Positions 1 to 38,691 of a stretch of 64,000 nt of DNA are shown piece after piece; position 1 is the first letter of the stretch, and each line of letters opens with the position of its first letter. This DNA is from Dicyema japonicum. Lineage: Eukaryota > Dicyemida > Rhombozoa > Dicyemidae. Both the position numbers and the translations under genes were made by a program. The stretch lies in assembly GCA_011109175.1 (NCBI GenBank), contig RDEW01000029.1, positions 406,158 through 470,157 of the forward strand, read 5' to 3'. The notes under the pieces are model-generated. The model was not told the DNA's origin, searched no databases, and was given only the letters and a program-made list of their open reading frames with translations.

Positions 1-1698
1 TCAGTACCAAAAATAATAATTTTAGATAAGAAATTCATTCAAACGGATGTTTAAAGCAAGATCTTCCAAAGAAAGCCTAGCCTCAATGAAAATAATTCAA
101 GAAGCGCCTTTGACGTGATCATTGGATGTTATAGACTAGATCTAACAACTCTGTGGGAGACATCAGTGATCTCTGTAAGCTATTGAGGGAAAAGGAACTT
201 ACTGTGGCTGACTTACAGCTTGAGATTGTCGCACAGAGAAATATAATAAAAGAACTGGAAAGCAAGCTCGAAGATATCCAAAAAAGCCATCAGTCAACTG
301 TCATATCTAAACGGAGACTGAGTGGAGTGGGGATCTTTACAGATGACTACAAACTAAGTTTAATGTTGATTAATTAGTAAATTTGCGAGCAAGTCAAGGG
401 AATGAGTGGGAAGAAATAATGATATCATTCTATCTCCTCCAAAAAACCAAAGGAAAGAAGGTAGTCATTCAATATAACACCAAGAGTTTTATGGGGAATT
501 TACTAATAAACAAAAGTATAAGTTGGGTTAGTCTCTTCCAAAATGCCAGGAAAATATTCAAAGTATTACACAAGATATTTTAGAATTTTATTAATTTGAT
601 TGACTCAAGATCAAATATAGGGATTGGACCTGAAAGTATCCACGCCTTGGTCGTTGGAGAAAAGTCATGGCTTGTCGGTCTACACAATTTCTTTATTAAA
701 GATAAGAACGTCCCGGTCTCCTCCCCTTGTTCTCATTTCTCCGGCTTCCACGACAGTATCTCCATTCTGTTGAAGGGATCAAAACAAAAGGCAACGGACG
801 AGATTGCCTTTGACTTGCTAATTTCAAACAAACTGATCACACGTTATATGGAAGAGATCACTAAAAGTAGGAGACTGATACTCTACGGTCCACAGCTTAG
901 TGGGAAATTCCACCTGGCGACCTCATTGGCTGAGCATATAAGAGATATCACATCGTCTGTCAATTAAAGTGATTTTTAGTTCCAAAACAACCGTGGTCGA
1001 AATCAAAAAAATATTCACGTCTGAGACAACTGTTTTGTCTACCCTTATGATGAATTTTGTTGAGAAAAATGACTGCAAGAATATTATATTTGTAGTAAAG
1101 AATATAGAAACTTGTAAATATAATTATCTGGATGTTCAATTTAGAAAGTTCTTTGCTAAAATCAGAAATTTACAGTATTAAAGTCGATTACTTTTAGAAT
1201 TTACATAATTGGAACCTGCAGGATAAACTCGAAAATTGTTAAAGATTTGGAGATGGAGTACAAATTCAAAGTATTTCGTCTTCCACTTCACATGGAACCT
1301 TTGGAGAACATAATATCTAGGTTAATTGTGAGGGAAAGCATTAACACAAACAATTCTATGATCAATTTGGAGACTGACGTTGAGATTGGCAACTTTTTTA
1401 CATCTACTTTGGTATTTATAAACGACCTCCTGGAGTCTAACGATAAGGGGGACAAAGTCTTAGGTTTAATTGTACTTTACTCTTAGGTCCCTTTATATTT
1501 GCAAACTGTCCTTTGTCAGGGAGTAAATCTGACTGGTTTGTCCGGACGTGGAATGAAAAAGTGATCCCCATTTTGAGGAATTCTTTGGACTCTACTCCCA
1601 AGGTCGAACCCTTTGATTGGGTGATGGAAAAAATTCCATGGAAGATAAGTCGAATTTCATTAAATAGACTGGGGATAATATATAAACGAGGAAATTAA
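1..1698 (+). CDS. Neuron navigator-like protein, C-terminal part (5' end outside window)
   Basis: The conceptual protein from exons 26-114, 140-357, 378-562, 584-954, 980-1174, 1198-1463 and 1487-1698 follows the C-terminal half of neuron navigators (NAV1-3, UNC-53, Sickie). It begins with an Arg-Asn-Ser-Phe basic segment, continues with a coiled coil (REKELTVADLQLE), then the AAA-like domain with GPQLSGKF, a YIIGT strand and the closing FDWVMEKIPW block. Family members act at microtubules and the cortex in cell migration and axon guidance. The seven introns, counting one at 4-25, are 20-25 nt and all have GT...AG ends; phases agree across every junction. The Walker A Ser/Thr is replaced by Phe and no Asp is seen at the Walker B position (IIFVVKN), so ATP hydrolysis is doubtful. 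The upstream part with the CH domain, if present, lies outside the window. Family assignment is by recalled motif order, not a search. Confidence 0.8.
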
Positions 1699-1747
1699 TA
1701 TTTAATATTTGTTTATTTATAAATTAAATTTTAATTATAATAAATAA

Positions 1748-1977
1748 ATGAGTGGTTGTGTGGATGATAATCTATCTGATTGTAGTAAAATATCTAATAA
1801 ATAGTACTATTTGAACTTTCTGAATTACTAAATACGGGACTTAATAGGGACACGTTGAATGTATGTATACAGTTGCTTGACTCGGGTGTTAATCCTGAAA
1901 CTCTTGCTGAGGTCGTCCAGGAATTACGGAAAGAACCCGATAAAGAAGTAAACTTTTTTATTTAAAATTAGAAATAA
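1748..1977 (+). CDS. MZT1: MOZART1 homologue (mitotic-spindle organizing protein 1)
   Basis: Exon 1 is 1748-1781, a 23-nt intron is 1782-1804, exon 2 starts at 1805. The protein is about 58-64 residues: an acidic start, then LFELSELLNTGLNRDTL, a second helix and GVNPETLAEVVQELRK, which is the three-helix MOZART1 signature. MZT1 binds the N-termini of gamma-tubulin complex proteins and helps dock the gamma-tubulin ring complex at spindle poles. The reading frame stops at 1965 if unspliced, or at 1977 if a possible 24-nt intron (1948-1971) is removed, which would leave a final Lys codon. The gene lies 50 bp after the navigator-like gene on the same strand. It was too short and too split for simple ORF calling. 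Confident in identity; less so in the exact C-terminus. Confidence 0.85.
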
Positions 1978-2059
1978 AATTTGTTTAATATTTTTTAGTT
2001 TTCTATTTGTTTTGTTATTTAACATGATTTACTTTTACGGAAAACCCAATTAATCAATA

Positions 2060-3475
2060 CGAATTTTATCCTTAAACGTGGCGTCATGCCTGTTGTTGTG
2101 GTGGCGCTCAGTGCGGCTTTTGCATGGAAGAGAACCGTTCGACTTTCCCTACCTTTCTGCGATCTTCAGACGGGTAGCTTACCAATTCCCCAGTTTTCTC
2201 TCTACTACTTCTGTGATGTAGAACCTAATCCGGGACCCAACTGCACGTTGAGTATTCCACAACTAAATGTAAATGGAATCCGCAATAAAGTATTGGAATT
2301 ACGATCCCTCTTATCCGATTTGAGAGTGGACATTGCCCTCATCCAAGAATCGAAGTTTTCTATAAAGTCCCCAACACCATGTTTTCTTGGATGTTGTGTA
2401 CTTCGCAGGGACCAAACAAGAAGTTTCGGAGGAGGATTATTGACGATCGTTAAGGATGGACTTAAATTCACTGATGTCACCCCTTCTGTATTTTATCTCT
2501 TCGAAGGGGATCTGGTCAAGTACTACTTCCTACATCCCCAACCTATTGAGCCTGTGTGGACTAAAGGATCTGCTACTATGCGGAGACCTAAACGCGAAAA
2601 ATCCACTCTGGCTCCAGACTCAATCAGTCGACAGTCGCGGCGAATACATCCTTTCCCTGATCAATGATCTGACTATCCTTAATGATCCGGACACCCACAC
2701 AAAAACTCCGTCCCGGAAAAGGAACAGTCCGACATCCCCGCACCTGTCTCTCTGCTCTCCTTTTATGGCTGGATGTATTTCATGGAATTTTCGTTATGGT
2801 TTCTCAAGCGACCATAACCCCATTGTGTTGAGACTTAGAAGGCCTATTTGTTCACCGTGTTGTTCTACAAAGTTCAAAAATTACTTGAAAGCCGACTGGC
2901 AAGGTTTCAGGACGTATGTGGACAATAGTCTCCTTGACCTTACTATGGTTAATTGCACAGTAGAGGAGACGGCCAAGATTCTGTCCGCTATCATTCTGAA
3001 AGCTGATAAACTATTTATACCTGTCGCCTCTTACAAGAAGTTCAATCCAAGATTATCATCACAAATTGTGTCACTCATCAAGAAACGAGATGCGCTGAAG
3101 AGGAATAGAACACAGACCAATAACTCCTTATACTCCATACGTTCATTGAATACCAAATTATCTGAGCTTATCCGAACTAACAACAGACTCAAATTGAGTC
3201 GCCTAGTCGGACGACTATGTGACAAAAACTCTTGTGCCACATTTTGAAAAGCGCTAAGAAGGAAAAACCCTACCTACTACCAATGATCAGGACACCATGT
3301 TTTGGTCCTATGCGGACGACCTAATTATCGCTGCAAGAAATAAATCTCCTTTCATGGCTGTAGCAACTGTTCAGATACACCTAAACCTAATTTGTGACTG
3401 GCTATCTGCAAATACGTGATTAGTTAGTTTGTTTAAGCGTGATCTCTGGTGATTTTATTATTATTAATAGCAATA
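2060..3475 (+). mobile_element. LINE family A copy (APE endonuclease plus YADD remnant), internally deleted
   Basis: The copy starts with the GTGGCG-type 5' end seen in other family A copies and ends near 3470 in a TTATTATT tail. ORF 2086-2667 encodes a hydrophobic N-terminus, a 2A-like peptide, and the start of an AP-type endonuclease (QLNVNGIRNK, ALIQESK). The frame then shifts (around 2480) into 2456-3247, which carries LLLCGDLNAKNPLW and SSDHNPI, the Asp/Asn and Asp/His catalytic blocks. Almost all of the RT is missing: 3247 is followed within about 70 bp by SYADDLIIAARN, the RT active-site box (about 3305-3345). The copy cannot be active as it stands. The clade is Jockey superfamily, CR1/L2-like by RT motifs of better copies; the exact clade would need a phylogeny. 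Confidence 0.8.
2215..2238 (+). other. 2A-like peptide motif (DVEPNPGP) in LINE A
   Basis: The codons read Asp-Val-Glu-Pro-Asn-Pro-Gly-Pro, matching the D-V/I-E-x-N-P-G-P consensus at which 2A peptides make the ribosome skip a peptide bond. It lies about 43 residues from the first Met and directly before the endonuclease domain. 2A-like motifs at this place are known in some non-LTR retrotransposons of trypanosomes and invertebrates. Activity here is inferred. Confidence 0.75.
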
Positions 3476-3489
3476 TCCGCGGAACCATA

Positions 3490-4050
3490 AAAATTAACTA
3501 ATTTGAGATTTTACTTTTACCATGCATCTCTGGATACGCCCTGCAATACATGGCCGACTAAAAATTAACACATAATACTTGGAGAATATGGACGCTATGA
3601 TATCTCGAATAATAGTAGGAGGATCCACATGCGCAATAAGATGTGAAGAAACCAGAAAAACACCAAGTTTATTACAACCTGTGTACGAATAATGATTTGG
3701 TTCCTTGGATGTCAAACCTCGACGCCAAAAGAGTCAGATAAATGTTTCAATCTTCTTCCATTCAGATTGGTTGTACCACACCCAAAAGCAACATGTTTTG
3801 AATTAAGATCTCCAACCAAATAGAGTAGTCAATAAAAAACTGGCTGATACTGTCCACACAATTATAAGAATCTTCGAATACATTGCCTTGATGGTAATCC
3901 ACACATCGTCACAGCAAAAGTCAACAGAGGTAAATTCACAACCAGTATTCCGTATGACTTGGGGTTTTAGAGTGCATTGATGTCGACGATAAAAAAGACG
4001 TACACGTGCCGGCAACAGCTACTTCCTTCCATCTTATATCTACAGACGAA
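3490..4050 (-). mobile_element. LINE endonuclease remnant, antisense
   Basis: On the minus strand this matches the copy at 7.5-7.9 kb: shared blocks include DSISQFFIDYLI, NSKH/QNM-VAF and an EPNHYSYT-like stretch followed by VFLVSS. The pattern (Asn-Gly-Arg-Arg-Leu ... then a Thr-His-Tyr-like block) is typical of the middle of LINE AP-endonucleases. Several frameshifts and stops break it. No RT is attached. Confidence 0.5.
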
Positions 4051-4466
4051 AACCCTCTAGGATGAAATCTTCTCCTTCTCTGATTTAAGTCTCGTTAACA
4101 ACGATAATATCAGCCACCTAGACTTTCAACAGTAATGAAAGTTCATCATGCCTTTTTCGAATGGATCTGGCAGTCACCAGCTTGGTATAACATTAGACTT
4201 CAACCAGCATATAAAGTATGTTATAAACCATAGAACATATGAAACAAGTCATCAATAGAGACTGTAGTGGTACATCTTTTAGGCAACAAAGAATATCTAT
4301 GCTGCTAAATAAATTGTTACTAATTATGCCTGTCAAGCATATTTACAGTTCTCTTAACCTGGAAATCAAAAAAAATACAGAATATTGTCTTACGGATTTC
4401 ATCATCTAGACGGTGTATGTTAAGAGAGATGACGTACTCTCTTGCCAAAGAAAGTCTCAGAGGAAA
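4051..4466. other. Gene-free stretch
   Basis: No reading frame or RNA gene is recognised here. The sequence is AT-rich and probably decayed transposon DNA, but I see no element end in it. Confidence 0.4.
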
Positions 4467-5048
4467 CGAACCTAAAGCTATTTGATTCCTTGTACAACTG
4501 GAACCTTTAGATCTCCACAAATAAAACTCGAAATAATAAACCTTTCTCTCAGTCTGAATAATAAGTATTTGAATTGGCAAAAAATGGGTTAATGTTTTAT
4601 TTTTTTGAGGCAATGAACCTAAATCAATTTGATTCCTTGTACAACTGCAACCTTATATAAGACTCGACAGAATAAACCATTCTCTCAGTCTGAATGGAAA
4701 GTATTTGAATTCACAAAAAATGGATTAATGTTTCATTTCTTTGATTTAATGAACCTAAAGCCATTTGAATCCTTATACAACTGGAACATTTAGATCTCGA
4801 CTGTCCAAACATAGGACATGTCAAAATAAACCTTTCTCTCAGTCTGAATGGAAAATATTTGAATTGACAAAAAATGGGTTAATGTTTTATTTTTTTAGAT
4901 AACGAACCTAGATCCATTTGATTTCTTGTACAACTGGAACCTATAGATCTCGACTGTCCAAATATAAGACTCGACAAAATAAACATCTCTCTCAGTCTAA
5001 ATGGAAAGTGTTTGAATTCGCAAAAAATTAGGTCATTGTTTTATTTTT
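4467..5048 (+). repeat. Tandem repeat, four diverged units of about 136-153 bp
   Basis: Four consecutive units start near 4467, 4614, 4750 and 4903. Each begins GAACCTA, followed by ATTTGATTCCTTGTACAACTG-like sequence, then CTCTCAGTCT, and ends in a poly-T rich stretch after AATGTTTTATT. Divergence between units is visible at many positions, including a deletion of about 25 bp in unit 2. This is a small minisatellite; no coding potential is seen. Confidence 0.8.
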
Positions 5049-6590
5049 TGACATAGTTACAGATCTGCTTTTTCATACTAGAAAAGCTGAAAACGTTTAG
5101 GGATCAATTTGTCCTCGGCCATTCGCAGTAGAAACTTCGGGGCTTATGCTTCGCCCCGATTTCGTTTAAGAGTTCGAGTCTGGTCGTACCAGTCATCAGA
5201 GATGCTATCCGAGAAATTGGAATCGCAATCTCTTCTGGTTGGGATATCCTCTAGAGCGGCATTGGTTTCGTGAACGCCTCGGAATTGCCATCGTTCGCGA
5301 CAATGCTCACTGTCTCTTGCTACTGCTGTCCGATTTGTAATAATAAATTTTTGATACTAAAAATATATTTGTCTAATCCATCGTTTCTAAGTGCCAAGAA
5401 TGTGAGATTCCAAGGAAAATCTAGAATATTCAACCACTTAAGTTCCAAATGAACGAATGAACGACTCTATTAATCAGGGAATGAAAGGTTGGGGTAGTTT
5501 ATTAAAGTCTTGCCTCTAGTCATGGACAATCCGCTAGAGTCCTTCTTCTCCATAGTTATCCAGATTTGCAAGTGGGGTCCAAACGAGGGATCCAGGAGTC
5601 CAGTCAAACGTTGACTCCCAAAGTCTTAAATAGTGATTCTACATAATGGTTAAATTATATTATATAGTTTGTGTTAGACACAGATGCCCTATTTATAACA
5701 AATATTCCAATCTTAATGAGTAAGCCTGTTTAAATGAAAGTTAATTATTATCATTATTTGTATAATTATTTTTGAAGATTGCACATATTTGAATGATCTA
5801 AAATATATAATTATCATAAACTATTGAAAATGAGCATACATAGGAAACAAATAATATTTGTCCACCATGTACTACTGTAATACGCTTAAAAGTACGTTCA
5901 CAAAGCTAAGTAATTTATAAATCATTACCACACCCACTTCATCTTCCAGAAATACAAATTTACAATTTAACTATAAATAATAATTACAATAACTGCATTT
6001 TCAATAAATTTAGGCTTATTTGATTCAAATATATAATCAATTAACCATTCTCTAATGTGGATTGCTGAGAAGATCACAATTATGGTAACATTGAATATCA
6101 AAATAAAAAATGAAATATCAAAAGCTAAAAATATAATAATTTACAACAGTTATATTTATCGGTTTAGTAATTTTCCAAATCCTTACAATTCCAAGTGTCG
6201 TCACGGGAATATAGAAAGTAGCAGTAATCAAGATACATGAAACTGAAACCCAAAAAAAGATTGGCGAATCAGTATCATCATAATTATTGATATATGCATT
6301 TATGAAGAACCCACCTCCAACAAATAGTCCAATAGAAGTTCCCTAACAATTAAAGTTATCATACAGATAAAAATATAGTTAAAATTATTGTATTTGCTAT
6401 AAACACGAATCGTTCAAATAGTATAGCCATTAATTAGAACACTTCATAAGTCTTTATTATATATTTGGTTAACCTTTGTAAATAATATTTAATAATAAAA
6501 TTATAATATTTATTTTATATTTTATTAACACTACTTCTATTTTGGTTGAGTTGGTGTCTCAATAGCACAAAGTCTTAATCACATATGAGG
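5049..6590. other. AT-rich stretch without recognised gene
   Basis: Short open frames (for example 5270-5452 and 6055-6240) have no recognisable domain and look like chance frames in AT-rich DNA. A GTTCGAGTC box near 5170 resembles a tRNA B box but no cloverleaf can be drawn around it. Confidence 0.4.
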
Positions 6591-6599
6591 CTATCCGAA

Positions 6600-6965
6600 G
6601 AGTTTACCGTTCTATCGTTTAATGTCATTAGACGCGTGGCGTTATGTGGTGCTGCGTGGTTAATCGGTTGAAGTTTTCTGATTGCTTGTCTCTTCATCTT
6701 CTCTCTTCCTATTAGAGTGGCGTCATGTGATCCACCTGGCTAGGTGACGCTTAGTGCCAGGCCGGCATGAAAAAGAATCATTTGCTTTCCCCACTCTACT
6801 GGAGGGGATTCCACAACTGCATGTATTGGACGTCTTATCTTTTATGCTGATTCCGGATGGAATCTGTTTCTGTAGAAGTGGAAACTAGATACAATAATTA
6901 ATTGTTTACTTTAACTTCTTTCGCGGTGCATCCGGGGTTAATAAATAAATAAAAAATAAATAATG
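6600..6965 (+). mobile_element. Short LINE A copy with both ends
   Basis: The left end (GGCGTCATGTGATCCACCTGG region near 6720) resembles the 5' part of the family A copies at 2.06 kb and, reversed, at 63.5 kb. The right end (CCGGGGTTAATAAATAAATA) resembles the 3' tail at 49.8 kb (reversed) and 9.6 kb. Only about 350 bp lie between, so nearly the whole coding region is deleted. Confidence 0.5.
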
Positions 6966-7326
6966 TCAGAGGCTTGAAATATATCTACAAACGAATATGC
7001 CAAGAATACTTACAGTGCCATTATTGGATGCTTAAGTGTGGACTATTTGAGTTACATAATGATTACCGATTTATCCTCCTACGATCAGAACTTTACCACT
7101 ATGGAGAGGGTTCGCTATTCACAAGAGTTATTTGAATTCAATCTAAAAGTTTTATTACATGAACGATGGATGATAGTCTCGTGTGTGGCACAGGCGGGAA
7201 CTTAATTATTTATTTGAATCATTTGTTCCTATTATAGACCAATACACTTTCCGAGGAACCATATCAGCTATCGGTCCCCTCAGGCAGAACACACACTTTA
7301 TTTTAAGCAGAGAACAGTTATCATAG

Positions 7327-7910
7327 CTAATCGATTAGGGAGAATCGAGAAAAGCTATTCACTTTTTTGTTTTCTTTTTCTTGGGTGTGTGGGCTATTTA
7401 GACGATCCGGTTTGCTTTCATAGCACTCACACCATGCAACAATATAGACATCGATAAAGAACATATCCGTCATAAAAGTCCTGTAATGACTGACATTATT
7501 AGCATTAAATTTCATAAAACCCCGCAATACATGGTAGACTTTAAATTGACACATAAGACTTGGGGAATATGGTAGCTTCCGATATCTGAAGACACCAGAA
7601 AAACATCAGGTTTATCACAACATGTGTACGAATAATGATTTGGTTCCTTGAATGTCAAAACCTTGACGCCAAAAGAGTCTAATAAATGTCCTAATCTTCG
7701 TCCATCCTGGTTGTTCATGCCACACCAAAAAGCAACATGTTTAGAATTAAGAACCAAAATAGATATCAGATAGTCAATAAAAAACTGGCTGATACTGTCC
7801 ACAAAATTAATGGTAATCCACATATCGTCACATCAAATGTCAACAGAGTAAACTACAATCCTGTTACGTATGACTTGGGGCCTTTGAGTGTATAGATGTA
7901 TGCGAAATAT
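7327..7910 (-). mobile_element. LINE endonuclease remnant, antisense (second copy)
   Basis: The minus strand reads HVAFWCGMNNQDGRRLGHLL, then FGVKVLTFKEPNHYSYT and VFLVSS, a better preserved version of the remnant at 3.5-4.05 kb. It fits the central part of a LINE AP-endonuclease. It is truncated on both sides. The frame changes near 7540. Confidence 0.55.
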
Positions 7911-8480: not shown

Positions 8481-8504
8481 CGCTTAGAATGCCCCTGCAA
8501 ATAT

Positions 8505-9620: not shown

Positions 9621-9625
9621 TAGCC

Positions 9626-17090: not shown

Positions 17091-18913
17091 TCACAAATTA
17101 TCATAAAAAGATGGGGACAGCATAAATTTTGCAATACGTTCCAACTCCTCAGATGTGGGCACGTGTTTTCCATAGTTAATGGGAGTGTAGGGCTGGAATA
17201 ACTAGATAATATACCATTAGAATAGCCAAAATGTGGTTAATAAAATCCTGTCGCTGTTGTCCATCAGTAAAATACAAATCCACCATTCTAACAAAACTTT
17301 TGTTTTTCTCATGAACCCAACTCACAGAAATACTCGAATCATAGTTTCTTCTGGGTAAGTGTAATCTCCTAATATCCGTCTCCAACAGAAAATTAGGGGA
17401 TTCCTAAACTAAATAAAATACCAACGTTGTTCCCAATCATGATAACATGACCAATTATTTCAACATTCCCCACAAACTCCAAATTGTCATTGTCCACAGT
17501 CTTATAGGAGATAACAACGTCGGGGAAAAATAATGAGACTGAGTCCAGATTGATCACCCTTTCGCAATCCTCCACCAGACTCATCAGACTAACATAATTT
17601 TGTCTGTATTCCAGCAAAATTCTGAGTAATTCAACGTTATTGTACATAAAATCCATACAAACCGACAGACAAAGCAAGTACTTTTCAACCACAACAACAA
17701 TGTTAGTCACGTAGGACTAAATTGAATAAAAAACCAACTTTTCTGCCAGCGTAAAACTCTCTGATTAGTGGAAACAACTGATAGGCAGTTTTGTTAATCC
17801 AACATAATTGTTCCTACAATAAGAAAGTACATACTCTTATTTTATTGAATTCATCAAACTCAGATGACATCAACATTTTAAATATTCCTGTCTTGGGGGA
17901 TAGAATAAACTTTTTATAGTATAATTTTGCATTTCTGTCCCTTCTTGGAGAGTTCACTTGAGGAGACTCATAATAGTCTGAAAAATTCTCAGTAAATGAG
18001 GCTTGTAAAAATGTGTCATGTTCATTGTGTTGAGTGGTAACTGGAATTCTTTCAGACCCAAAGGTAGGCTTCATTGACTCGGTGTGTTCTAAATTTACTG
18101 AATCAAATAATTCAGCTGGAGACTTGCGACTATTTTGAAGAGGTGGTCCACCAAATCCCTTTACTTCTGTGGAGTTTTGAAAGTTATGATCTAGATATTT
18201 TTGCCAAGAAAATTCTTGTTCCTTGTCAATAAACTTTTGGTGGTCAATTTCGGAAATAAAAGATTTCTGATGGTGCAATACATTACATTTTAAGTCTCCA
18301 AGTTTTTTAGAGATATCACTGAGGTTCTCCTGAACTTCTCTCACATGTAGGTCTTTCATTTCCTCCATCATCTTAATAAGGCAATCATTATCAGACTCAA
18401 TATTGTTTATTCGATCAGAATTCGCATTCACGCGCTTTCCCAGTTCCTCTAGTCTTTCAGCCATCTAAATATGACAGAAGAGTACTGAATGAATTCCTAA
18501 AGTCTGATTATACATGATTTTGGAGAATAGTTCAAACTGTTGTATCATTGACTGCTGGAAAGCATAGTTCTGTTTAACTTCTTCGTTCTTGTTCCTTAAG
18601 AGAAGGGTCATGGCGTCCTGCAAGGAATTGAGGCTGCAAGCTATTTCGTGTAATGAGTATTCTTGAGGTTTTTGGCTTAGGGAAGTAACTTCTTTAGTCA
18701 GGTCCCTTATTTTCGAATTGAGAAGGTCAAATGAAAAGTCTAGACTGTCGATGGCCTGGCAAATCATAAATCATAATAAACCATCAATTGTGGGAGTTTT
18801 TCTGAGATCTTGGTGTTTATTATTTTTGATATTTGGGCTAAATAAAAATTACTCATAATTTCGTCTTTCTTTGGTTTTGAAAAACCTGACTTGCCGACAT
18901 CACCACGATTCAT
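17091..18913 (-). CDS. Unrecognised coiled-coil protein, seven exons
   Basis: Exons (written in plus coordinates, read downward) 18782-18913, 18486-18755, 17835-18464, 17739-17813, 17426-17716, 17215-17403 and 17091-17192 join to an uninterrupted 562-residue protein. The six introns are 21-26 nt, all GT...AG and all in phase 0. Residues about 40-210 are strongly heptad-like (KIRDLTKEVTSL, SDRINNIESDN, VQENLSDISKKLGDL), a coiled coil. A Ser/Pro/polar linker follows, then a compact C-terminal part with hydrophobic strands (NIVVVVEKYLLCLSVCMDF) and a closing SEELERIAKFMLSP helix. No signal peptide or clear membrane segment. Looks like an expressed host gene because every splice junction keeps frame. 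I do not recognise the family; the architecture would suit a cytoskeletal or trafficking adaptor, but that is a guess. Confidence 0.75.
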
Positions 18914-19018: not shown

Positions 19019-19019
19019 C

Positions 19020-22862: not shown

Positions 22863-23979
22863 ATGCCCCAATTACAGCAGCAAATATCTGCCATAATTAA
22901 CCACGAGTTGAGTCAATGTTCTGAAGGAATGAAAGAATCGTCGCTTTATTATTTCTTAAATGGAGGCAAAAGGATCAGATCCCGACTTACTTGTTTGGTC
23001 TCCAATATTTGCAACAGTCATTCAGAGTTGTTCCATCAGTTTATTTAGCCATTCAATTATCATAAATGAACACCAACTGAGTATTGCTGCCATTGTGGAG
23101 ATGATACATTCGGCTTCTCTCACTCATGATGATGTCATTGATATGAGTGAGGTACGCCGGAATAAAATAACACTCCCCAAAATTGTGGGGGATTATAAAG
23201 TAGACACAAGTGGTTGTTTGCAGTCGATTTTGGTAGGAAACTTTATTCTCTCACGTGCGTCAATGATTCTTGGGAGAATAAGGAGGCCCGACGTGACTGT
23301 TGTCCTTTCCAAAGTTATCAATGACCTTGTTATGGGTACTAAGACTTTAATATGTAGGGGAACTTGGCCAGATTGGGAATAAAAACAAATCGTTTGATAA
23401 TTACGATGAAATGTTGGAAGAGTATGTAGATACAATATATAAAAAGACAGCCTCTCTGTTTGCTAACAGTTTCAAAGCAGTTTGATATATTTTTGTGTTA
23501 ATTTAGGTCGCTCTTTTGTCCGGTCATCCAAAAATTGATAGAATCTCAGAAATTGCATACGAATTCGGAAAAAACTACGGACTGGCATTTCAGGCTTGTA
23601 TTTTACTTAATTTAGATAATTGACGATCTCCTTGATTTTACCTCTGCCCAAAGTGAACTTGGAAAAAAAACCAACATGGACATCCGCCAGGGATTGATCA
23701 CTGCTCCCATAATATTCGCTGCTAAACAGGTTAGACCCCCTTCTCTATGAAAAGTCAAGTGAAATGCACGCCTTACTTGCTCGTAAATTTTACAAAGTGG
23801 GAGATGTAGAACGTGCAGTAGAAATAATACAAAATGTCAATGTGCTTGATTCTGTTAGAGGATTCGCTGAGAAATTTGCCTCATTGGCTGAGGATGCTGC
23901 CATTAGACTCATTCCTGACTCACAAATGGCCAATTTACTAACGAAATATTGCAAAGATGTTATGGAAAGACGTAGTTGA
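22863..23979 (+). CDS. PDSS1: Long-chain polyprenyl diphosphate synthase subunit 1 (decaprenyl/solanesyl type)
   Basis: Seven exons (22863-23026, 23049-23199, 23224-23335, 23358-23479, 23507-23593, 23616-23729, 23755-23979) give 324 residues with no break. GGKRIR is the substrate-binding block, THDDVIDMSEVRR holds the first DDxxD motif, and IIDDLLDF the second; GDYK-SILVGNFILS and KTNMDIRQGLITAP match the chain-length-determining family. The enzyme adds isopentenyl units to make the side chain of ubiquinone, in mitochondria. Introns are 22-27 nt; the fifth (23594-23615) has GC...AG ends, since only that boundary restores Gln-Ile-Ile-Asp-Asp. The first in-frame ATG at 22863 leaves little room for a mitochondrial presequence; an upstream exon cannot be excluded. 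PDSS2, the usual partner subunit, is not in the window. Confidence 0.88.
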
Positions 23980-24019: not shown

Positions 24020-24680
24020 GAACATAAAAAATAATATTTTAAAATTTAATCCTTTACCCACAAGGAACAGCCTAGTCGTCCGTCTGATCGACTCAAAGGA
24101 TAAAATTATTCAACATCCTCACCAAATAAATTTTTCACTACAAATAGTTAAAATTTGTTGTTTTAATAATAGGAGAGAGGACGGATGCATTTATATCCAG
24201 TATCGAAAGAAAACTTCTTTCGAAGAGATGCGAGTCCCGCGTAGGAGTCTGAATTATTACAGAATGTGGGAAGTGATAAATGAAAGAACAAAAGAAAAAT
24301 GGGAGCTGCTCGTCAACGTTTCGCCAAGTTTATATAGAGACAGAAATATAAACACTGTGAATTGGACACAATATTAGTAGCAATACAGAATTTATAGACT
24401 TATTGGTCCAAACCACTCTTGAAGACTGTTAGAGTGGTTCTGGACATCCCTCGTTACTTCGATAACGTGACTAACGTGACTGTTTTTAAAGCGATAATCA
24501 GAAGTGTTTGAATTTAATTGGAATATCGCTTAAGTGCAAGTTGAATAAAGTAGGAGACACAACGAATCCTTGGGGGACTCTTTTTGGAAAGATGAAGAAA
24601 AATAGAATAGTTGCAGCAACGCATAGCAACTCCTCGCGATCCGGGAAGTGAAATGGTTAACTCCTTCACAGACGCCGTGC
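24020..24680. other. Stretch without recognised gene
   Basis: No domain seen. Lies between the prenyltransferase gene and LINE fragments and is probably degraded LINE sequence in its right half. Confidence 0.3.
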
Positions 24681-28985: not shown

Positions 28986-29039
28986 TAAACCATATTCAAA
29001 AGACCTGGATGTTCATTCATGCCATGGTCGAAGGAATAA

Positions 29040-29800: not shown

Positions 29801-29959
29801 TGTCTTGTAACCAGCAAATTATTTAAAGTCAATAATTTAGCCGATTCAAGTCAAATCGATACTTTAATAATCCAAATCAAGTGCATTCATTGACTGAATT
29901 AATTAAAACGTGATTTTACACTTATATATATAGGAATATTTCATTTCATTTCGATAAAT

Positions 29960-30560: not shown

Positions 30561-30639
30561 TATTATGTAACACGCCGCCTTCTAAATAAAATATTTTATG
30601 AAATAAAATCAATAATTTAATTAATTAACACTGCCAACC

Positions 30640-31610
30640 ATCTAAAGTGGACCCCGCCGACATTATCGACGTTGCGTTGCCTCTCAAGATTGTAACAGAG
30701 ATCAACTGAGAAGTCACCGGGTCTCACGTGCGTCGTGGCTTTTAGTGCAGCTAGGCGTCCAAGTTTCTTTAGGAAGCGAAGAGGGTATCCCGCAGACTCC
30801 AGGGCTCGCTTGACAATTCCGTTGATCGCCTTGTGTCTTAGGAATCGTCCTGCACTTCTTCAACAGGAGAGGGCATGGCGTCTATAACAATCGACGGTGG
30901 CGCCACACCAGCATTTGTGAGTACGTCAAATCTCCAGTCCAAGTCTGGTGGAGATGCAGACAATATAGTCGTCAAGAGTGCATTGATCCAACCGCCACTC
31001 CACTCGCATCTTCCAGTGACTGTTGGTTTGATTGGTTCAGAAGCCTCTCATATTTATCTTCGCAGATGGTCTTGTAACGGTCTTTCTGCTCAGGCATCAT
31101 CCCTTTCAAATGCTCCATATCTATGATTTCAACTGATTCTGTTTAGAGTTGGAGAATCATCCTAATCAGCAGTCGGCTGGAGCCCAAAAAAGACAGATAC
31201 GCTGGCAAGCCAGATCTTTCGGTGAAGGGATTCCCAGTCGAATTGTTTCTGGTAGTGTCCCTGATAGCATCCTGTTCATTAGTTTGGTTGCCCGTGCTAT
31301 GAGCAATGAGGTCTTTGAGGTTCCCCGGACGGAGCCCATCTAGTCCTCCACTGCTGCTCGGGACGAAAAATAGAATCCCATCTTTAACGTTTTCTTCAGA
31401 TACAAGTAGGTTGGGTAATTATCCTGGGCAAGGCGGAATCTCATGGTCGTTGGGGGAACTTGGATGTCGCTCAACAAGTGATGCGTAGGACCGTTCAGAC
31501 GGCACAATTATACTGTGTTGATCTGCAAGGATCCTCACGGCAGCACGGATTCCTTTTAGGAGTCTGCCAATAGGTTCCTTGAGGAGAATGTGTGGACATT
31601 CTCCTTTACT
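30640..31610 (-). mobile_element. RT-type retroelement family D (invertebrate 'GLRPGNLKDL' type), fragment
   Basis: On the minus strand PSSSGGLDGLRPGNLKDLI is followed by scattered blocks and ends with a CGATVD...HALSC...RSAGRFLRHKAINGIVKRAL pattern (about 30,920-30,780). I recall this two-block arrangement from RT proteins common in invertebrate genomes. The central catalytic part is deleted. Frames are broken. Confidence 0.5.
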
Positions 31611-31639
31611 AATGACGTAAGTGATTTCTCTTCTTTCCC

Positions 31640-32920
31640 CTTCCTATGGGGTATGCATGGTGTGAATAGAGCGAGACAAAATAATCGTACCTAATCCTCA
31701 GAGTCGTCCGAAGAGACTGCACTTTCAATACACTCACATATGCAGTCCGCGACGGATATACGAGCAGCTTTGGGGATCCTGATCAAGAGTCTTCGTGTGT
31801 GTGTCAGGTTTGAGATCAATTCAAGTATTTCCTGATTGTCTAGTGGAACATGTTCAGAAGGGTATCGTAAGGCCGTATGTCGTTATCTGGTAGGAGACAT
31901 GACCGACAGTGCCAATTGGAAATGACAGCCAGGGCTCTTTTAGTCATTCCGACATAGGTCATGTGGAAGCCACATGAACAGGCCGTGCAAGGCTATCCAG
32001 TGAATCTTGTAAATGGGTACCCGCTGTGTGGATACACTGGTCTCTTGTTTCCAGGATTAAGTCGTCAGCATAAGCAAGGAATAGGGTATCGTTGCAGTGT
32101 GGGAAGACAAGTCGCTCATAAGTAGGTTGAAGAGAATAGGTGAGAGAGGGATCCTTGCGGGAAATTTAGTGACTGAAAAGATGGAATGGGAAATTCCTCT
32201 TTGTCCGTTGAGGAAGTTTACGAGCCAAATTTTCATGTTGTTCAGAATGTTAGAGCCATAGATCTTCCTAGTGAGCAGTTTTCTTGGAATCGAGTCAAAA
32301 GCCTTCTGAATATCAATGGAACACATAGTGGTCTTTTGATGCCGAGGTTTGCGTTGAAGGTCTTTGTCAAGCAAGTAAGGTGGGTAGTTATAGAACGAGC
32401 CTTCTTAAAGACATGTTGGAATGATACGTCTGGGAGGTAAGGTTTAATCTGATCGAGAATGAGTTTTTCCAGGATTTTGGAGGTGACACACAGGAGGGAT
32501 ATTGATCTGTACGAAGCTGGTGAGTCATCAGGCCGTCAAAGTTTTAAGATGGGCCGAATATGGGATAATTTCCATAGAGTAGGAATCGAGTTTCTACTGA
32601 TGGAGAGGCTGTAAATTCTGGTCAAAGCCAGGATGGTGTAGGGGCCTATCTTCTTAAGTACAATAGAGGGAATTCCATCTGGGCCACTTGCGTAAGACGA
32701 TTTCTGGTTTTGAATAGCCGCACGACGTCCGTCGTAAGGCTGTTCGAGGTTGCCTCGCGTTTTTGTTTTATTGAAGATGTAGGAGAACCTTCAATTTTCT
32801 GGTGTGGGATTAAGATCACGGAGGAGTAAACTTTTATAATCTTGTTTAAAAAGTTCTTGTTCTCTAGGTCTTCGCAAGAAGGCGGTCTTAAAGAGTTATC
32901 CGAGGAATCATAGTTTGGTA
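31640..32920 (-). mobile_element. LINE A-related RT fragment
   Basis: ORF 32057-32374 (minus) includes TTMCSIDIQKAFDSIPRKLL, MKIWLVNFLNGQRG and ARIPLSPILFNLL; the YADD block is lost to a frameshift (LLMLTT follows PYSL). Upstream (32.4-32.9 kb), other frames carry SYRSISLLCVTSKILEKLIL. The C-terminal part extends to about 31,650. It is more distant from the array copies than those are from each other. Confidence 0.65.
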
Positions 32921-32974
32921 GAGGAGACTAACTTACATTAGTAAATTCAAAACACAAACACTGATAAAATAATC

Positions 32975-34051
32975 TTAGATTAATCCAGCGGACTCCAAGT
33001 TGAATTGGATTATAATATAAATCACATTCTGGAAGACTTTTTTGACGTTATCAGTGTCCACGGCACATATATAATGAACATACACTTTTCTTTTGCTTTG
33101 TTGGTTAATTTTTCCACAAAACATATTTTTGATAAATTCCTGCACATCTGACTTGTTGGTAGGATCCCCTAACATTAAAAAATATACAAACCACTAAATT
33201 CAGGGAAGGTGTCCTTAATTGAGTGTTGGCTGAACATATTCGAGAAAAGGTCGTATTTGTTAAAAAACAAGATCACTGACTTATCTTCAAAGTTGTCGTC
33301 GTTTACAACGGAATCGAATAACATGATACTCTCCCGCATTCGATTCTGTTACTGAGACCAGAAGACAAACCGTTTTGAAATCCTCCTGCAACAAGAGGTT
33401 ATAGTCGGACATGGAGGACACAAATACAATTGCAGTCACCTCACTGAAACAATAAATCCACTTTTTTCTTTCTGATCTTTGTCCCCCCACGTCGAGGACT
33501 CTAAAATGGAATTAGAGAGAAACTTGAAAGTGGTGTCGTTGAACATAAACTCAATAGAAGTCACTCCCGTCGTCTTCACTCGTGCCCTCAACACATGATC
33601 TATTGACGGAACGTATTCAGGATCATTGATTTCGTCCAAACTGTTAAAGAAACTAAAATAGTATCCATTGCCAAAGTGAGAAAATTACAGGCAACTTCCT
33701 GAAAGAAATGCGTATTTACATTACAGAATTGTCTTCATTGATAAAGTCTATTTTGAGATCAGCCATAGCTCTGAGAATGGCCACCATACTTTGCATAACA
33801 TTAGAGTGGATAATCTTCTTGAAGGCGCGACGTTCAGATTCACTGTAGTTCCCGATATGGATTTGTCGAATTTGCTTGAGAAGTGTACTCTTCCCAGACT
33901 CACCCGGACCTACATGGAGACATTAAGAAAACCAAGTAGAATTATGTTGAAGCACTTCCTTACCTCCTTGGTGATGTTCTTCATTTTCTTTTCGGCGGCA
34001 AGTCTTCTTTTTTTTGGCCAATTGAAAGTCAGAACCATGAACACATCCCAT
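32975..34051 (-). CDS. Heterotrimeric G protein alpha subunit, shortened helical domain
   Basis: Read downward from ATG 34051 (MGC start, a myristoylation/palmitoylation pattern). Blocks in order: [13 protein letters not shown] (P-loop, Pro for the usual Ala), [26 protein letters not shown] (switch I with the catalytic Arg), [14 protein letters not shown] (switch II), [11 protein letters not shown] (NKxD), ICAVDTDNV (guanine-binding loop) and C-terminal NLESAGLI. Introns at 33910-33932, 33501-33523, 33346-33370 and 33169-33191 are 23-25 nt. The intron between IDFINEDNS and [11 protein letters not shown] is unclear: only a 67-nt intron keeps frame, and about 45-50 residues of the all-helical domain are then absent. 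An 8-A run at about 34008-34015 puts the MGC start one base out of frame with the rest. The C-terminus lacks the Cys found in Gi/o. It couples receptors to effectors at the plasma membrane. Confidence 0.8.
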
Positions 34052-34079
34052 CACCTATTTAGAAAATCTGCTGAATAAT

Positions 34080-34350
34080 TCAGACTTAATTTATGTAAAT
34101 TATGAAATCCCCTATTTTTTATTTATGATAAACTAATCATTTTTAAATAATTAAAATTTAATTATTTTATTATTTTTATACCATTTCGTGTTTTTAAATT
34201 TACCACCAATTACTTGTGGGCCCATCACTCTCAGAAGGACGTTTGATGTCACTCGGCTTCCTGCATGTTAGTGTGGTCTTGCAACTAACTCGCTAACTAC
34301 CATTCATTGTAACATTCAAATATAGAAACCTCCTTTGTGGTCAAAAAGTC
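34080..34350. promoter_or_regulatory. Upstream region of the G-alpha gene
   Basis: A/T-rich DNA between the G-alpha start and an antisense LINE B tail. No defined promoter element is recognised. Confidence 0.2.
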
Positions 34351-34640
34351 CGTTCAATTCTTTGATCTTCATTTTATTGTTATTAACACGTTTGAGAAAA
34401 CAATAATTAATTAGAGTTTTCTCTTGTGTCACATTCATTCTTTATTCGCCTTGATAATCGCATCCAGTGTATTCTATTCATTTCCTCGGCTCTTAGTAAA
34501 TCTAGATCGTCTTCAGACTCAGTTTTCATAAATCTTTAATCAGACCTATGGGTAAGGTAGTTGTCCATCGTCAAGGAAGTCACCGATTCATGGAAAACGT
34601 GGTACTTATCTATAACGTCGGAAACTTTTTTGGTGCTGGT
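34350..34640 (-). mobile_element. LINE B 3' fragment, antisense
   Basis: The minus strand reads KTESEDDLDLLRAEEMNRIHWMRL, aligned to LKTGDDLDELRSLAFDRGRWKRL at the C-terminus of LINE B, followed by a tail ending in ACAATAAAATGAAG. It is a short, old, 5'-truncated copy. Confidence 0.6.
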
Positions 34641-34799
34641 GCATTATAGTACCCCAAAGCAGGTATAGTAATCAATAATAGTAAATATTTTTATCTCAAT
34701 AAATTTTTTTGACCGCTAGAAACAATTTCCCTACTTATCACTAGACTGACGTTGCTAGGGACGAATATAGAGACCTTGAAAATTGGTCCTTCCTTTTTT

Positions 34800-36300
34800 A
34801 CATCCGAATAGATAATTAGATACGAATTGAATGCCCAAGTTTACGAGATTTTTCGTAATCCCAGGTCGAAAGTTTTACCAGTCAATGGCCAACCTTAAAG
34901 CTAATCGCACGTAAAATTGCATATAGAAATTCAAATCAAGATTTCACTGCTTCCAATGGATGGTTTTACAGATTTAAGAAGCAATTCGAAATAAAATTCA
35001 GAATATTAGATGGATAATCACAATCAGCAGATAAAGGAGGTACGAGAAACTTCCGATCAACTTTCAATGATTTGCTTGAGAAATGTGGTGAAGAAAACAT
35101 TTTTAATTGTGATGAAACTGCATTATTTAATAAAGCTGTTTCCAAAAAAGATTTGTTGAAAGAAATGAGTCACACAGCAGACATAAAATAAGAAAAGAAC
35201 GTATGACACTTCTTTTGTGTTGCAGTTACACAGGAAAAAATATAAACCGCTTATAATTGGGCGTGCGAAGTTACCAAGAATATTAAAAGGTGTGAATCTG
35301 AAAGATATCGGCATTGAATATTATGCTTTCAAAGTCTGGATGACAAAAAATATTTTTGAAAATTAGTTATCTCGATTTAACAAGAAAATGAGGGAGAAAA
35401 GAAGAAAAATAGCATTATTAATTGATAATGCAACTTGTCATGCTGTTTCTACCCAATATTCAAACGTCGACGTAATATTTTTTTCAAAAACACAACTACC
35501 TTATTTCAGCCATGTGACCAAGGATGCATTTAAGAATCATTTCAATAATTGGATAATGAAAACGATTATCTATGATAAAAATCCTGTAGCTCAAATAGAT
35601 GCTATTTCATGTTCGAATTTGGCATGAGGCGAGATTACAGAAACTTCAACACGACATTGCTTTGAAATGGCTTTGGAATATGAATATCTGGAAAAAGAGG
35701 ACACCGAATAAAGTCTGATTGATTCTGATATTTTGGAGAGCTTCTGGATGATAATAGTAGTGATGAAAAGGACTGCAGTGAACAATTTCTGGATCATTTG
35801 GATGATCAACAAGTTATAGACAATGCGGAATGCGCATTTACAATGCTGCTAATGTTATTAAACAATAGACTCAGGAAAATGCCCTTGATCTATACAGATT
35901 TAATTTTAATTTAATCAATTCCAAAGACCACTGTTAAACCAAAAAGACTAAACTAAGTGATCCCGACGAATTGGATCAAGGCTCTCATCTTTTCTCGGTG
36001 TTGATCCCTTGAGCCTACACAAGTACGTTGCGAAGCATTTTTTGGCATTGGTGTCCATTTTTGTTTTTTCGATTAGTTTCTCCATGGGCGTCAATAGATT
36101 CAAAGATTATGAGTCCATGCGAAAAAATAACAGTCGATTAAAATTAACAGATTTTTTTATTAAAAAATAAAAATTGTAATTATCCGTCTTGGTTATATTA
36201 TTAAAATAGGAAATCGAACAGTTATATTAAAAATTAGGAAAACCCTCTTTTTTGGGGAAGAAATAAAGATTTCCCCAATTCGGGGTCGCACTGTAATATA
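34800..36300 (+). mobile_element. Tigger/pogo-type transposon, inactive
   Basis: Plus-strand frames carry, in order, EIFRNPRSKVL, ASNGWFYRFKKQFEIKFR (CENP-B/Tc5-type DNA-binding helix), NIFNCDETALFNKA (first catalytic Asp, NxDET), KPLIIGRAKLPRI, KIALLIDNATCHAV (second catalytic Asp, LLIDNA) and the acidic C-terminus. At least four stops interrupt it. The right end, CCCCAATTCGGGGTCGCACTG followed by TA at about 36,277-36,299, matches the terminal repeat in the array units and ends on the TA target expected for this superfamily. The left end is not recognised. It lacks the SINE found in the other copies. Confidence 0.8.
35388..35627 (+). pseudogene. Tigger transposase, central part of DDE domain
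   Basis: The longest open piece of the broken transposase (80 codons) with KIALLIDNATCHAV and PYFSHVTKDAFKNHFNNWI. The DDE domain would cut and join DNA in the nucleus. Stops before and after prevent function. Confidence 0.75.
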
Positions 36301-37800
36301 AAAAAAGCTTTTATTAAAAAGGCCTGTTTGATTTCTGCATTTTATTCAACGCCTCAAGTACTTTGTCTTCCCTCGTCGATTTTTATACGTATTTTTAAAC
36401 TCCCTTGACGTTTCACACACTTTTTTAATGAAAGATCCAGTAATAAGCTTCATTCCTCCAGGATGTCTAGTATAATACAGCTAGAACTAAGATTAACATA
36501 AAACTCTTTTTAAAGTAAATTAAAAATTTCATTTTTCTTTCGTAAAGGGGGACCGATGTCAAGATCTCCCTTTTTTGTAACTTGCTCCAATCACTTTTTT
36601 AGACAAAATTAAAAAATTCGTCTCGCGGTGATTTAGTGATATGTAGGCAAGTTGTTTCTAGCACCAAAAAATTATTAATTCTAGCTGAAAATTATTCAAC
36701 AATTACTAGTCATCCATATTTAATTAACATCTTTCAAAATAATCCTTATGATTTAGATAATTTGTGAAATAGTTGCTCTTTCAAAGGACTTTACGATCAA
36801 TGACAACAGCAGCAATTAAAACACGTGAAATCGACTAAATTTCTATCAACAAAGATATACAGCATTTTCCTTTAATAAAATCAAAATTATTCCAATTCTC
36901 CATTTTCAATTATATAATAACAGATTGACAATTAGCTATGAAAAAATCTGTTGATTCCATATTCACTTCGGACTAAAAAATTCCATTAAAATTGAAGTGG
37001 AAGGGAAACAATACCATTAAAGAAATGGCAAAGAATTTTGGGAATAATATTCGATACGTTGACATGGTTCTCACGGCATATCTAAAATGTGGAATCAAAT
37101 GAAAAGAAAAATCAACTGAATAAAAAACCTAACACAGTTATAGACAATAGAGAATCATTCCCTCCTAAAAACTTTTAACTCGCAATAAACTTAGCCATGC
37201 ATATAAATGAATGCGACCTATGACATTCAATGGGATATCTACTTTGACTTCAAGAGACTGTCTTCCTTCCCAATCTATTATCCGGGGTTAAAAACGATGA
37301 AAAAATCTAAAAAAAAGAATTATTCACTTCGGACTAAAAAATTCAGACAAAAAATTACATGCGGTTTTGCTAATTATTTTCTAGTCGGAATGTTAAATAA
37401 TGGTACAATACGGAAGCTGCAATCCGTAGATGTTGTTGATAATGCTTCGTTTCAATGTATGCCATTCCTTATGTGATGACTTAATTTTGTATCATTACTA
37501 AATTCACAGTGGTATTTGAAGAAGCTGGAAATGTATATTTTAAGCTCAAGAGGACAGAGTCACTAGACGCATGTCTTACGAATTCTATTCTGAACCTAAA
37601 GTGCAAGAAAATGAAAAATTAGCTAGTCGGGATAGTTTTACTAGTAACGTGGTATAAAAACATTTTAGAGCAAACAAAACTTAAGAATTAATTAAAAAAT
37701 TTAGAATGAAACCAATGTAACTAAAGTCACATTACACGCTTCAAAAATAATTGCTGAATAATTTCAGCTATAAAAGGAATTTTTAAACGAATTTTGCAAT
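36301..37800. other. Stretch with possible but unassigned coding pieces
   Basis: ORF 37207-37476 (89 aa, with CGFANYFLVGMLNNGTIRKL) and 37,500-37,650 (VFEEAGNVYFKLKRTESLDA) look protein-like and could be exons of one gene, but the intron needed to join them is longer (about 54 nt) than the others here. A NTIKEMAKNFGNNIRYVD segment at 37.01-37.07 kb resembles a helix-turn-helix of a transposase. Nothing is assigned. Confidence 0.3.
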
Positions 37801-37809
37801 TTTAAGCAA

Positions 37810-38691
37810 ATGAATTTTCTCTTTTACACGTTATTCTGTGGTTTCGTTGGTAATTTATTTTTAAAAAGTTTTAGACAACAGACACTTAAACAGAAGATTC
37901 GATGTCGCCACTGTTCTGGATAAAACTTTTGTTTAGATTTAATATTTTACATATAGCAAAAAGATTACGGCTTTGATAAAAACCAAATGAGACAACACAT
38001 TAAAAAATTGTTCGATCTTGCTCAAAAAGTATATATTTATAATAATCAGTATCTTGGAACAATCAAAATTCAATTAAATCTTACAAAAATATACTTCACT
38101 GACGACATTACATCAACTGATCCTTACACTGCTTCCTTGTACGCAACTAATAAAAAATATTTACTTGATGCAGACGCAGTTTTATTCTTTGAGTAATTAT
38201 TCTAACTAATTCTCAGAAATTCTTATGTCAAAGGAAAAACAGGAACACGTAGAGTGGGAATAGCATATGTAGGAACTGTCTGCACATCTAAATCAGTGGG
38301 AATTGTTTTTAAGCAATCCTACGATAAAAAGACTGCAGCGACTATATCTCATGAGTTATTCCACTTGCTTGGTTTTTACCACGTCAAAATTACTGAGAGT
38401 AATTGCAATAAAAATTGTTTAATGAATCCTAGTAGCTATAAAAATAAGTATAAAAATTCTTAATTTTTAGACATGTGTCGAAAAAATCAATCGACACTAT
38501 GCCTTTACTGGAATACATGTGGCGGTGCCTTAAATCGAGTAATGAATTGTTTTAAATTAGTCAATGTTACTAATGATGTCCCCGACAGTGAAGGTAAAAC
38601 CGTAAATTATGAATCTAATGGAGCTAATTTCTGGATTTACTCCTTTCTTCTTTTTCTGGTACAATATGCTAATCATAATTTAGGCCTTTAA
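37810..38691 (+). CDS. Secreted ADAM/reprolysin-type zinc metalloprotease, catalytic domain only
   Basis: Exons 37810-37849, 37875-37930, 37957-38192, 38217-38431 and 38471-38691 give 255 residues without break; introns are 25, 26, 24 and 39 nt. Residues 1-13 are hydrophobic and could be a signal peptide. RRFDVATVLDKTF is the start of a reprolysin domain, GIAYVGTVCTSKSVGIV a conserved strand, HELFHLLGFYH the HExxHxxGxxH zinc site with catalytic Glu, and CLMNP the Met-turn. A Cys-rich end and a hydrophobic C-terminal segment (FWIYSFLLFLVQY) suggest membrane or GPI anchoring. There is no room for the usual prodomain or a disintegrin domain. The last intron could also be the 23-nt one at 38448-38470, but that breaks the frame. 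Confidence 0.82.

What the first reader, a model, noticed from the sequence alone, without database searches (positions are those of the whole stretch)
1..38691. Introns of 20-27 nt in every host gene
In five host genes the frame closes only after removing about two dozen GT...AG introns, mostly 20-27 nt (for example 358-377 is 20 nt, 563-583 is 21 nt). Exon phases agree at nearly every junction. Introns of this size are known in dicyemids and very few other eukaryotes; combined with metazoan-specific genes, they point to a dicyemid. The splicing machinery must work with almost no room between donor, branch point and acceptor.
Basis: partly seen in the sequence, partly recalled or inferred. 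Interest (0 to 1): 0.75.

Follow-up and report, generated by a model that had tools for sequence, protein, structure and literature searches.

The report
Tiny spliceosomal introns of a dicyemid
The genes in this stretch of animal DNA are interrupted by what look like real introns of only about 20 to 27 bases, a trait already published for dicyemids (minute parasites of octopus kidneys), so the finding is sound but mostly confirms what is known.

Summary
Confirmed, and ordinary for its likely lineage. The window lies in a 64.7 Mb animal genome. In the five host genes that I find there are 27 short introns (20-27 nt), including the two cited.

A gene finder with a flat length prior, run on 20 kinase regions outside the window, gives 65 GT-AG introns of 20-29 nt against 11-26 for 11 decoy dinucleotide pairs. 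Neighbouring Pfam matches imply 20-27 nt in 16 of 23 closely spaced pairs; 10 wider pairs cannot be resolved. Retaining one intron lowers a kinase-profile score in 76 of 78 informative cases, of 119 tested. Two of four paralogue pairs share six intron positions and phases while lengths drift by 1-3 nt.

Dicyemid introns of this size have been in print since 2007 (PMC2222250, PMC6543705). A dicyemid is the best assignment, but no match to a named dicyemid was made.

Two details go beyond the passages I read: a weak branch-point signal 6-8 nt from the last base, and U12 and U6atac snRNA genes with one tentative U12-type intron of about 52-58 nt.

The parts
47..1698 (+). Neuron-navigator (NAV)-like gene, 7 exons
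   Evidence: Pfam AAA_lid_NAV1 48.0 bits and Ubiquitin_6 28.9 bits on the spliced product
115..139 (+). intron, 25 nt, phase 2
   Evidence: frame and coding score only
   Evidence: junction at residue 157 inside Pfam Ubiquitin_6
955..979 (+). intron, 25 nt
1175..1197 (+). intron, 23 nt
1464..1486 (+). intron, 23 nt; junction at residue 434 inside AAA_lid_NAV1
17193..18913 (-). host gene of unknown family, introns 18756-18781, 18465-18485, 17814-17834, 17717-17738, 17404-17425, 17193-17214 (26, 21, 21, 22, 22, 22 nt)
   Evidence: no Pfam match, so coding score only; the automatic model runs on into a LINE and was cut by me
22863..23979 (+). polyprenyl synthetase-like gene
   Evidence: Pfam polyprenyl_synt 141.8 bits on the automatic model, which skipped one exon; frame change by one base near 23733
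23027..23048 (+). intron, 22 nt
23213..23236 (+). intron, 24 nt
23336..23357 (+). intron, 22 nt
23480..23506 (+). intron, 27 nt
23594..23615 (+). GC-AG intron, 22 nt, joining ...GLAFQ to IIDDLLDF...
   Evidence: read by eye, translated; not found by the GT-AG finder
33025..34038 (-). G-protein alpha subunit gene (C-terminal end not resolved)
   Evidence: Pfam G-alpha 294.8 bits; aligned to Gi-alpha-1
33910..33932 (-). intron, 23 nt, phase 1, in the P-loop region
   Evidence: junction without gap against Gi-alpha-1
33501..33523 (-). intron, 23 nt
   Evidence: junction without gap against Gi-alpha-1
33346..33370 (-). intron, 25 nt
   Evidence: junction without gap against Gi-alpha-1
33169..33191 (-). 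intron, 23 nt
   Evidence: junction itself without gap against Gi-alpha-1, a one-residue gap a few residues further on
37207..38658 (+). reprolysin (M12B)-like metalloprotease gene, introns 37364-37384, 37850-37874, 37931-37956, 38193-38216, 38448-38470, 38539-38560 (21-26 nt); ends approximate
   Evidence: Pfam Reprolysin 46.5 bits

Best explanation
These are genuine U2-type (major-spliceosome) introns of a dicyemid, shrunk to about 20-27 nt (median 23). Layout: a weak 5' site (GT, then A or T), about 10 nt of spacer, a loose TNAY branch site whose A lies 6-8 nt before the last base, a T-rich stretch of about 4 nt, then AG. Shown: the introns interrupt conserved coding sequence with consistent phase; lengths peak at 22-23 nt; a positioned A/TNAY signal exists; U1-like, U2 and U6 snRNA genes and U2AF large-subunit-like exons are present, with the usual 5'-site and branch-site pairing stretches in U1 and U2. 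Inferred: splicing works by intron definition, with U1 or U6 and U2 bound almost side by side on about 16 nt between donor and branch A; the space left is too short for a classical polypyrimidine tract, so 3'-site choice leans on the branch site plus the first AG; the introns shrank by deletion to about the smallest length the spliceosome tolerates.
For: GT-AG excess at 20-29 nt over 11 decoy pairs (65 against 11-26). Implied lengths from neighbouring Pfam matches with at most 8 unmatched profile positions: 16 of 23 in 20-27 nt, 14 of them 22 or 23. Intron retention lowers leave-one-out kinase profile scores in 76 of 78 informative cases of 119 tested, median about 61 bits. Two of four paralogue pairs share 6 intron positions and phases with lengths 23/24, 26/25, 26/25, 23/26, 23/22, 22/23; 5 of 6 differences would break the frame if not removed. 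G-alpha joins to Gi-alpha-1 without a gap at four junctions. In a set called with no interior information (155 introns), A at 6 and 7 nt from the last base is 71 and 67 against about 42 expected, TNAY at 6-8 nt is 68 against about 30. U2: 22 of 25 matches over cut-off, branch-pairing GTAGTA in 10 of 10 read. U1: ACTTACCTG in 9 of 10 read, ACTTACTTG in one. U6: 9 of 10 matches over cut-off. U2AF large subunit: matched exons at C114. Literature.
Against: No RNA data were available, so splicing is inferred. Irimia and Roy saw no branch-point signature in 41 Dicyema introns, and the signal here is weak. All 11 U1 matches score below Rfam's cut-off (best 69.0 against 69.5 bits); no single U2AF exon reaches its family's cut-off (best 82.6 against 310.3); U4 and U5 were not searched. 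Species identity is by elimination: no match to a named dicyemid, and the homeodomain count disagrees with the D. japonicum paper. By the decoy level about a quarter of the first-stage 20-29 nt calls are expected to be false. Seven of 23 close Pfam pairs imply other lengths (-7, 1, 2, 13, 38, 47, 68; several are alignments that run into the intron or overlap), and 10 pairs with 9 or more unmatched positions give 24-225 nt in sum. The gap test did not discriminate: 48 of 67 junctions gapless against 697 of 918 random positions. 41 of 119 retention tests were uninformative and 2 went the other way.
Confidence: 0.93

Rival explanations
1. The segments are removed at DNA level, like the internal eliminated sequences of ciliates (dicyemids carry many small circular DNAs), so mature somatic genes lack them.
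For: Size overlaps the shortest ciliate eliminated sequences (recalled), and circular contigs are reported for Dicyema sp. (passage).
Against: Ends are GT and AG with a T-rich acceptor and a positioned A, which is spliceosomal. A published comparison of cDNA and genomic clones in D. acuticephalum shows spliceosomal introns. The genome keeps U1-like, U2, U6 and U2AF-like genes.
Confidence: 0.02
2. The frame breaks are pseudogene decay or assembly errors, joined by chance GT and AG.
For: One frame change by one base sits in the polyprenyl synthetase-like gene near 23733, and the right part of the window holds several LINE copies.
Against: Length peak specific to GT-AG, shared positions in paralogues, 76 of 78 profile-score falls on retention, 16 of 23 close Pfam pairs implying 20-27 nt.
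Confidence: 0.02
3. The introns are real but the host is another animal lineage with extreme intron shrinkage, not a dicyemid.
For: No sequence match to a dicyemid; 67 homeodomain matches against 16 gene models in D. japonicum.
Against: Orthonectid median intron is 57 bp. I know of no other animal with a modal intron under 30 nt (recalled). Gene-model counts and six-frame domain matches are not the same measure.
Confidence: 0.06

Closest known systems
Dicyemid introns (Aruga 2007 PMC2222250; PMC6543705 of 2019; Lu 2019 PMC6736024)
   Same: Spliceosomal introns of about 26 nt, several per gene, weak splice-site consensus, metazoan genes, genome of about 65-67 Mb.
   Different: Here the median is 23 nt (mode 22-23), a little below the published mean 26.2 and median 27; a weak positioned branch site is detectable; minor-spliceosome RNA genes are noted.
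Paramecium tetraurelia introns (20-35 nt, quoted in PMC2222250)
   Same: Size class and weak signals.
   Different: Ciliate, not animal; presumably reached independently.
Bigelowiella natans nucleomorph introns (18-21 nt, quoted in PMC2222250)
   Same: Extreme uniform shortening.
   Different: A relict algal nucleus with an even narrower length range.
Human short introns spliced with SPF45/RBM17 and without U2AF (PMC8363638, start of abstract seen in a search listing)
   Same: Little room for a normal polypyrimidine tract.
   Different: The human test intron is 56 nt; whether RBM17 exists or acts here was not tested.

Membership tests
U2-type spliceosomal introns | GT-AG ends in excess over other dinucleotide pairs | tested here: met
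U2-type spliceosomal introns | Removal restores the reading frame and conserved protein | tested here: met
U2-type spliceosomal introns | Branch-point adenosine upstream of the 3' end | tested here: inconclusive
   weak positional A/TNAY signal; branching itself not testable here
U2-type spliceosomal introns | U1, U2, U4, U5, U6 snRNAs with pairing stretches | tested here: inconclusive
   U2 and U6 over cut-off, U1 just under; U4 and U5 not searched
U2-type spliceosomal introns | Absence of the segments from mRNA | not testable with these tools
   no RNA data
Dicyemida | Animal gene set | tested here: met
Dicyemida | Modal intron under 30 nt | tested here: met
Dicyemida | rRNA, mitochondrial or Hox sequence match | not tested
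   no 18S, COI or Hox comparison was run; the one protein search found no relative
Dicyema japonicum (species) | 16 homeobox gene models | tested here: inconclusive
   67 six-frame homeodomain matches, some of them split genes or fragments
U12-type intron (PLC gene at G000:C126:181460) | 5' ATATCCTT and branch TTCCTTAAC motifs, homologous coding on both sides, defined 3' end | tested here: inconclusive
   motifs met by the way it was found; Pfam match extends over the junction but most PDB alignments cover the downstream exon only; 3' end chosen to keep the frame, AT-AC 58 nt or AT-AA 52 nt

The most novel reading that the evidence does not exclude
In a genome whose major introns have shrunk to about 23 nt with the branch adenosine 6-8 nt from the 3' end, the minor spliceosome is still functional and its introns have not shrunk alike (one candidate of 52-58 nt in a phospholipase C gene). 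One animal would then hold two spliceosomes with different minimal intron lengths, which lets the physical lower limit of each be measured in the same cell.
Probability: 0.5. Interest if true: 0.55.

Novelty: new member of a known kind. Interest (0 to 1): 0.38.

Why it matters
Introns this short test how little RNA a spliceosome needs between its contact points. The trait itself is in print for dicyemids. What this genome adds is a larger set of introns with a measurable, if weak, branch-site position and lengths a little below the published ones, and signs that the minor spliceosome survived the same shrinkage, which would give an internal comparison.

Tried and rejected
A first codon-model run with strict thresholds found almost no genes and was replaced. 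The gapless-junction test in kinases did not discriminate (48 of 67 at junctions of 20-29 nt, 697 of 918 at random positions). A shortage of intron lengths divisible by three (72 of 285) was seen but not claimed, because the finder prefers to read through such introns when they hold no stop. My first list of Pfam neighbours (17 of 20 in 20-27 nt) was picked by eye and favoured close pairs; one search lists all 33 neighbour pairs that I find within 300 nt and replaces it.

U12-type pattern scans: the tight pattern gave 9 matches against 32 for the reversed control, the longer one 2 against 4, so there is no overall excess. Of these 11, three were read: C2 lies in a LINE reverse transcriptase and C141 in DNA with no consistent open frame, both taken as chance; C126 borders a phospholipase C Y domain. 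Eight were not read. For C126 the two 3' ends first tried do not join the open upstream frame to the phospholipase C frame; a 3' end 5 bases further on (AT-AC, 58 nt) does and was chosen afterwards. Pfam PI-PLC-Y: 57.5 bits for that join, 61.3 for a 52 nt join with AT-AA ends, 49.2 for a GT-AG alternative, 48.7 for the downstream exon alone, nothing for the upstream exon alone. Against PDB chains the join gains nothing (best 31.3 bits against 32.2 for the downstream exon alone); only the gamma-1 chains align far into the upstream exon. U4atac gave no hit, with a silent control. U11 was not searched. A protein search with the NAV-like product gave no relatives at E <= 0.001.

Paper searches for minor splicing in dicyemids: (188 papers, 15 listed) listed one paper with all three terms, PMC2483917; among the 12 of 98 listed none held Dicyema together with the minor-intron terms. 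That is not proof that nothing is in print.
Full report
Setting. The window is C114:406158-470157 of a 64.67 Mb assembly in 191 contigs. Window GC is about 37%. PAX, NAV1-like and reprolysin domains and homeodomains make it an animal.

The cited introns. Both are in the sequence as described. The five host genes that I find are a NAV-like gene (47-1698 +), a gene without Pfam match (17193-18913 -), a polyprenyl synthetase-like gene (22863-23979 +), a G-alpha gene (33025-34038 -) and a reprolysin-like gene (37207 to about 38658 +). They carry 26 GT-AG introns of 20-27 nt and one GC-AG intron of 22 nt. From the list I dropped four short calls at 24318-24671, beyond the probable stop at 23977-23979, and long calls of 137, 104, 375 and 67 nt. 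The polyprenyl synthetase-like gene changes frame by one base near 23733; whether that is a sequencing error is open.

More than chance. A Viterbi gene finder with only a codon model, GT and AG, and a flat length prior of 10-400 nt was trained and run on 20 regions around kinase genes (190 kb; window excluded). It gave 65 introns of 20-29 nt. Eleven decoy dinucleotide pairs under the same codon model gave 11-26 in that bin, with similar numbers of genes (29-36 against 33) and no excess for GT-AG in the other bins. A second stage with splice-site weights and a length prior, whose later rounds included the window, gave 361 introns in genes scoring at least 22, of which 298 are 17-29 nt. Some of the longer ones are plain mispredictions, such as the repeated 51, 57 and 79 nt gaps in LINE copies of the window; the rest were not checked one by one.

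Homology without the gene finder. From all 33 neighbour pairs that I find (same contig and strand, within 300 nt) of Pkinase, PAX, U2AF and homeodomain matches, 23 leave at most 8 profile positions unmatched; the implied intron is 20-27 nt in 16 of these (22 or 23 nt in 14) and -7, 1, 2, 13, 38, 47 and 68 in the other seven. The other 10 pairs leave 9-63 positions unmatched and give 24-225 nt, which may sum several introns (it replaces the hand-picked list). In 18 predicted kinase gene models, restoring one intron of 20-29 nt changes the score against a leave-one-out kinase profile by more than 0.5 bit in 78 of 119 cases, and in 76 of these the score falls. The spliced G-alpha product aligns to Gi-alpha-1 without a gap at four junctions; one of them has a one-residue gap a few residues further on, and the region of 33653-33723 is unresolved.

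Evolutionary test. Two of four paralogue pairs compared share intron positions and phases (three each, within one alignment column). The six intron pairs have diverged in sequence, with lengths 23/24, 26/25, 26/25, 23/26, 23/22 and 22/23. Five of six length differences are not multiples of three, so the segments should be absent from the mature message if both genes are functional.

Anatomy. In a set called with no information on intron interiors beyond GT, AG and a preferred length of 17-31 nt (155 distinct introns, median 23), the donor is GT followed by A (45%) or T (31%). A is enriched 6 and 7 nt before the last base (71 and 67 against about 42 expected), TNAY at 6-8 nt is 68 against about 30, and T makes up 45-54% of the four positions before AG. 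Irimia and Roy found no branch signature with 41 Dicyema introns and the weakest known 5' consensus; the larger set here shows a weak, positioned one. U2 genes keep the branch-pairing GTAGTA (10 of 10 read) and U1-like genes the 5'-site-pairing ACTTACCTG (9 of 10 read; the tenth has ACTTACTTG). U6 has nine copies over cut-off. U2AF large-subunit exons lie at C114:219969-221071, two of their gaps implying introns of 22 and 23 nt.

Minor spliceosome. A U12 snRNA gene scores 85.4 bits (cut-off 53; sequence) and a U6atac gene 37.0 bits (cut-off 33; sequence). U4atac gave no match, with a silent control. Pattern scans for U12-type introns showed no overall excess. Of the 11 hits three were read: two are taken as chance. 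The third, at C126:181460, carries the 5' and branch motifs by construction and splits a phospholipase C Y domain. With a 3' end chosen to keep the frame, the product of a 58 nt AT-AC intron scores 57.5 bits over Pfam profile positions 18-82, the downstream exon alone 48.7 bits over 50-82; a 52 nt AT-AA join scores 61.3 and a GT-AG alternative 49.2. Against PDB chains the join scores no better than the downstream exon alone, and only the gamma-1 chains align far into the upstream exon. I take it as a tentative U12-type intron of 52-58 nt. Larue et al. give Blastocystis the shortest mean minor intron in their survey, just under 42 bp, having excluded introns under 30 bp, so the length is no record.

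Comparison with print (passages only). Dicyema acuticephalum: 26.2 +/- 1.9 nt, n = 16, from cDNA and genomic clones. Dicyema sp.: median 27 bp; orthonectid median 57 bp. D. japonicum: mean 38.2 bp, 67.5 Mb, 36.7% GC. The median of 23 nt here is a little lower. I cannot say whether this is D. japonicum or another species: size fits, but 67 homeodomain matches against 16 reported gene models do not fit simply.

Verdict. The core is known. The branch-site position and the surviving minor-spliceosome RNAs are the parts worth following. The confidences given for rivals are rough and were not made to sum to one.

Noticed in passing
G000:C68:163471-163599 (L053) and G000:C34:237761-237858 (L056): U12 and U6atac snRNA genes, one match each, in a genome of 23-nt introns.
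   Followed up: partly
G000:C126:181460-181517 (L057): Tentative U12-type intron of 52-58 nt inside a phospholipase C Y domain.
   Followed up: partly
window 49833-63990: Four copies of one LINE reverse-transcriptase unit in the same orientation, spaced about 3.2-4.0 kb, with several 300-base stretches identical in three copies: recent tandem-like amplification or an assembly effect.
   Followed up: partly
window near 23733: Frame change by one base in the polyprenyl synthetase-like gene, beside a short C run; sequencing error or real is open.
   Followed up: partly
window 33653-33723: The G-alpha product lacks part of the helical domain here; the intron structure of this spot is unresolved.
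   Followed up: no
whole genome: 67 homeodomain matches, far more than the 16 homeobox gene models reported for D. japonicum.
   Followed up: no
whole genome, e.g. L037-L040 on C115: 16 nearly full-length U2 matches, five of them on contig C115; the U1-like genes read differ more from one another outside the 5' end.
   Followed up: no
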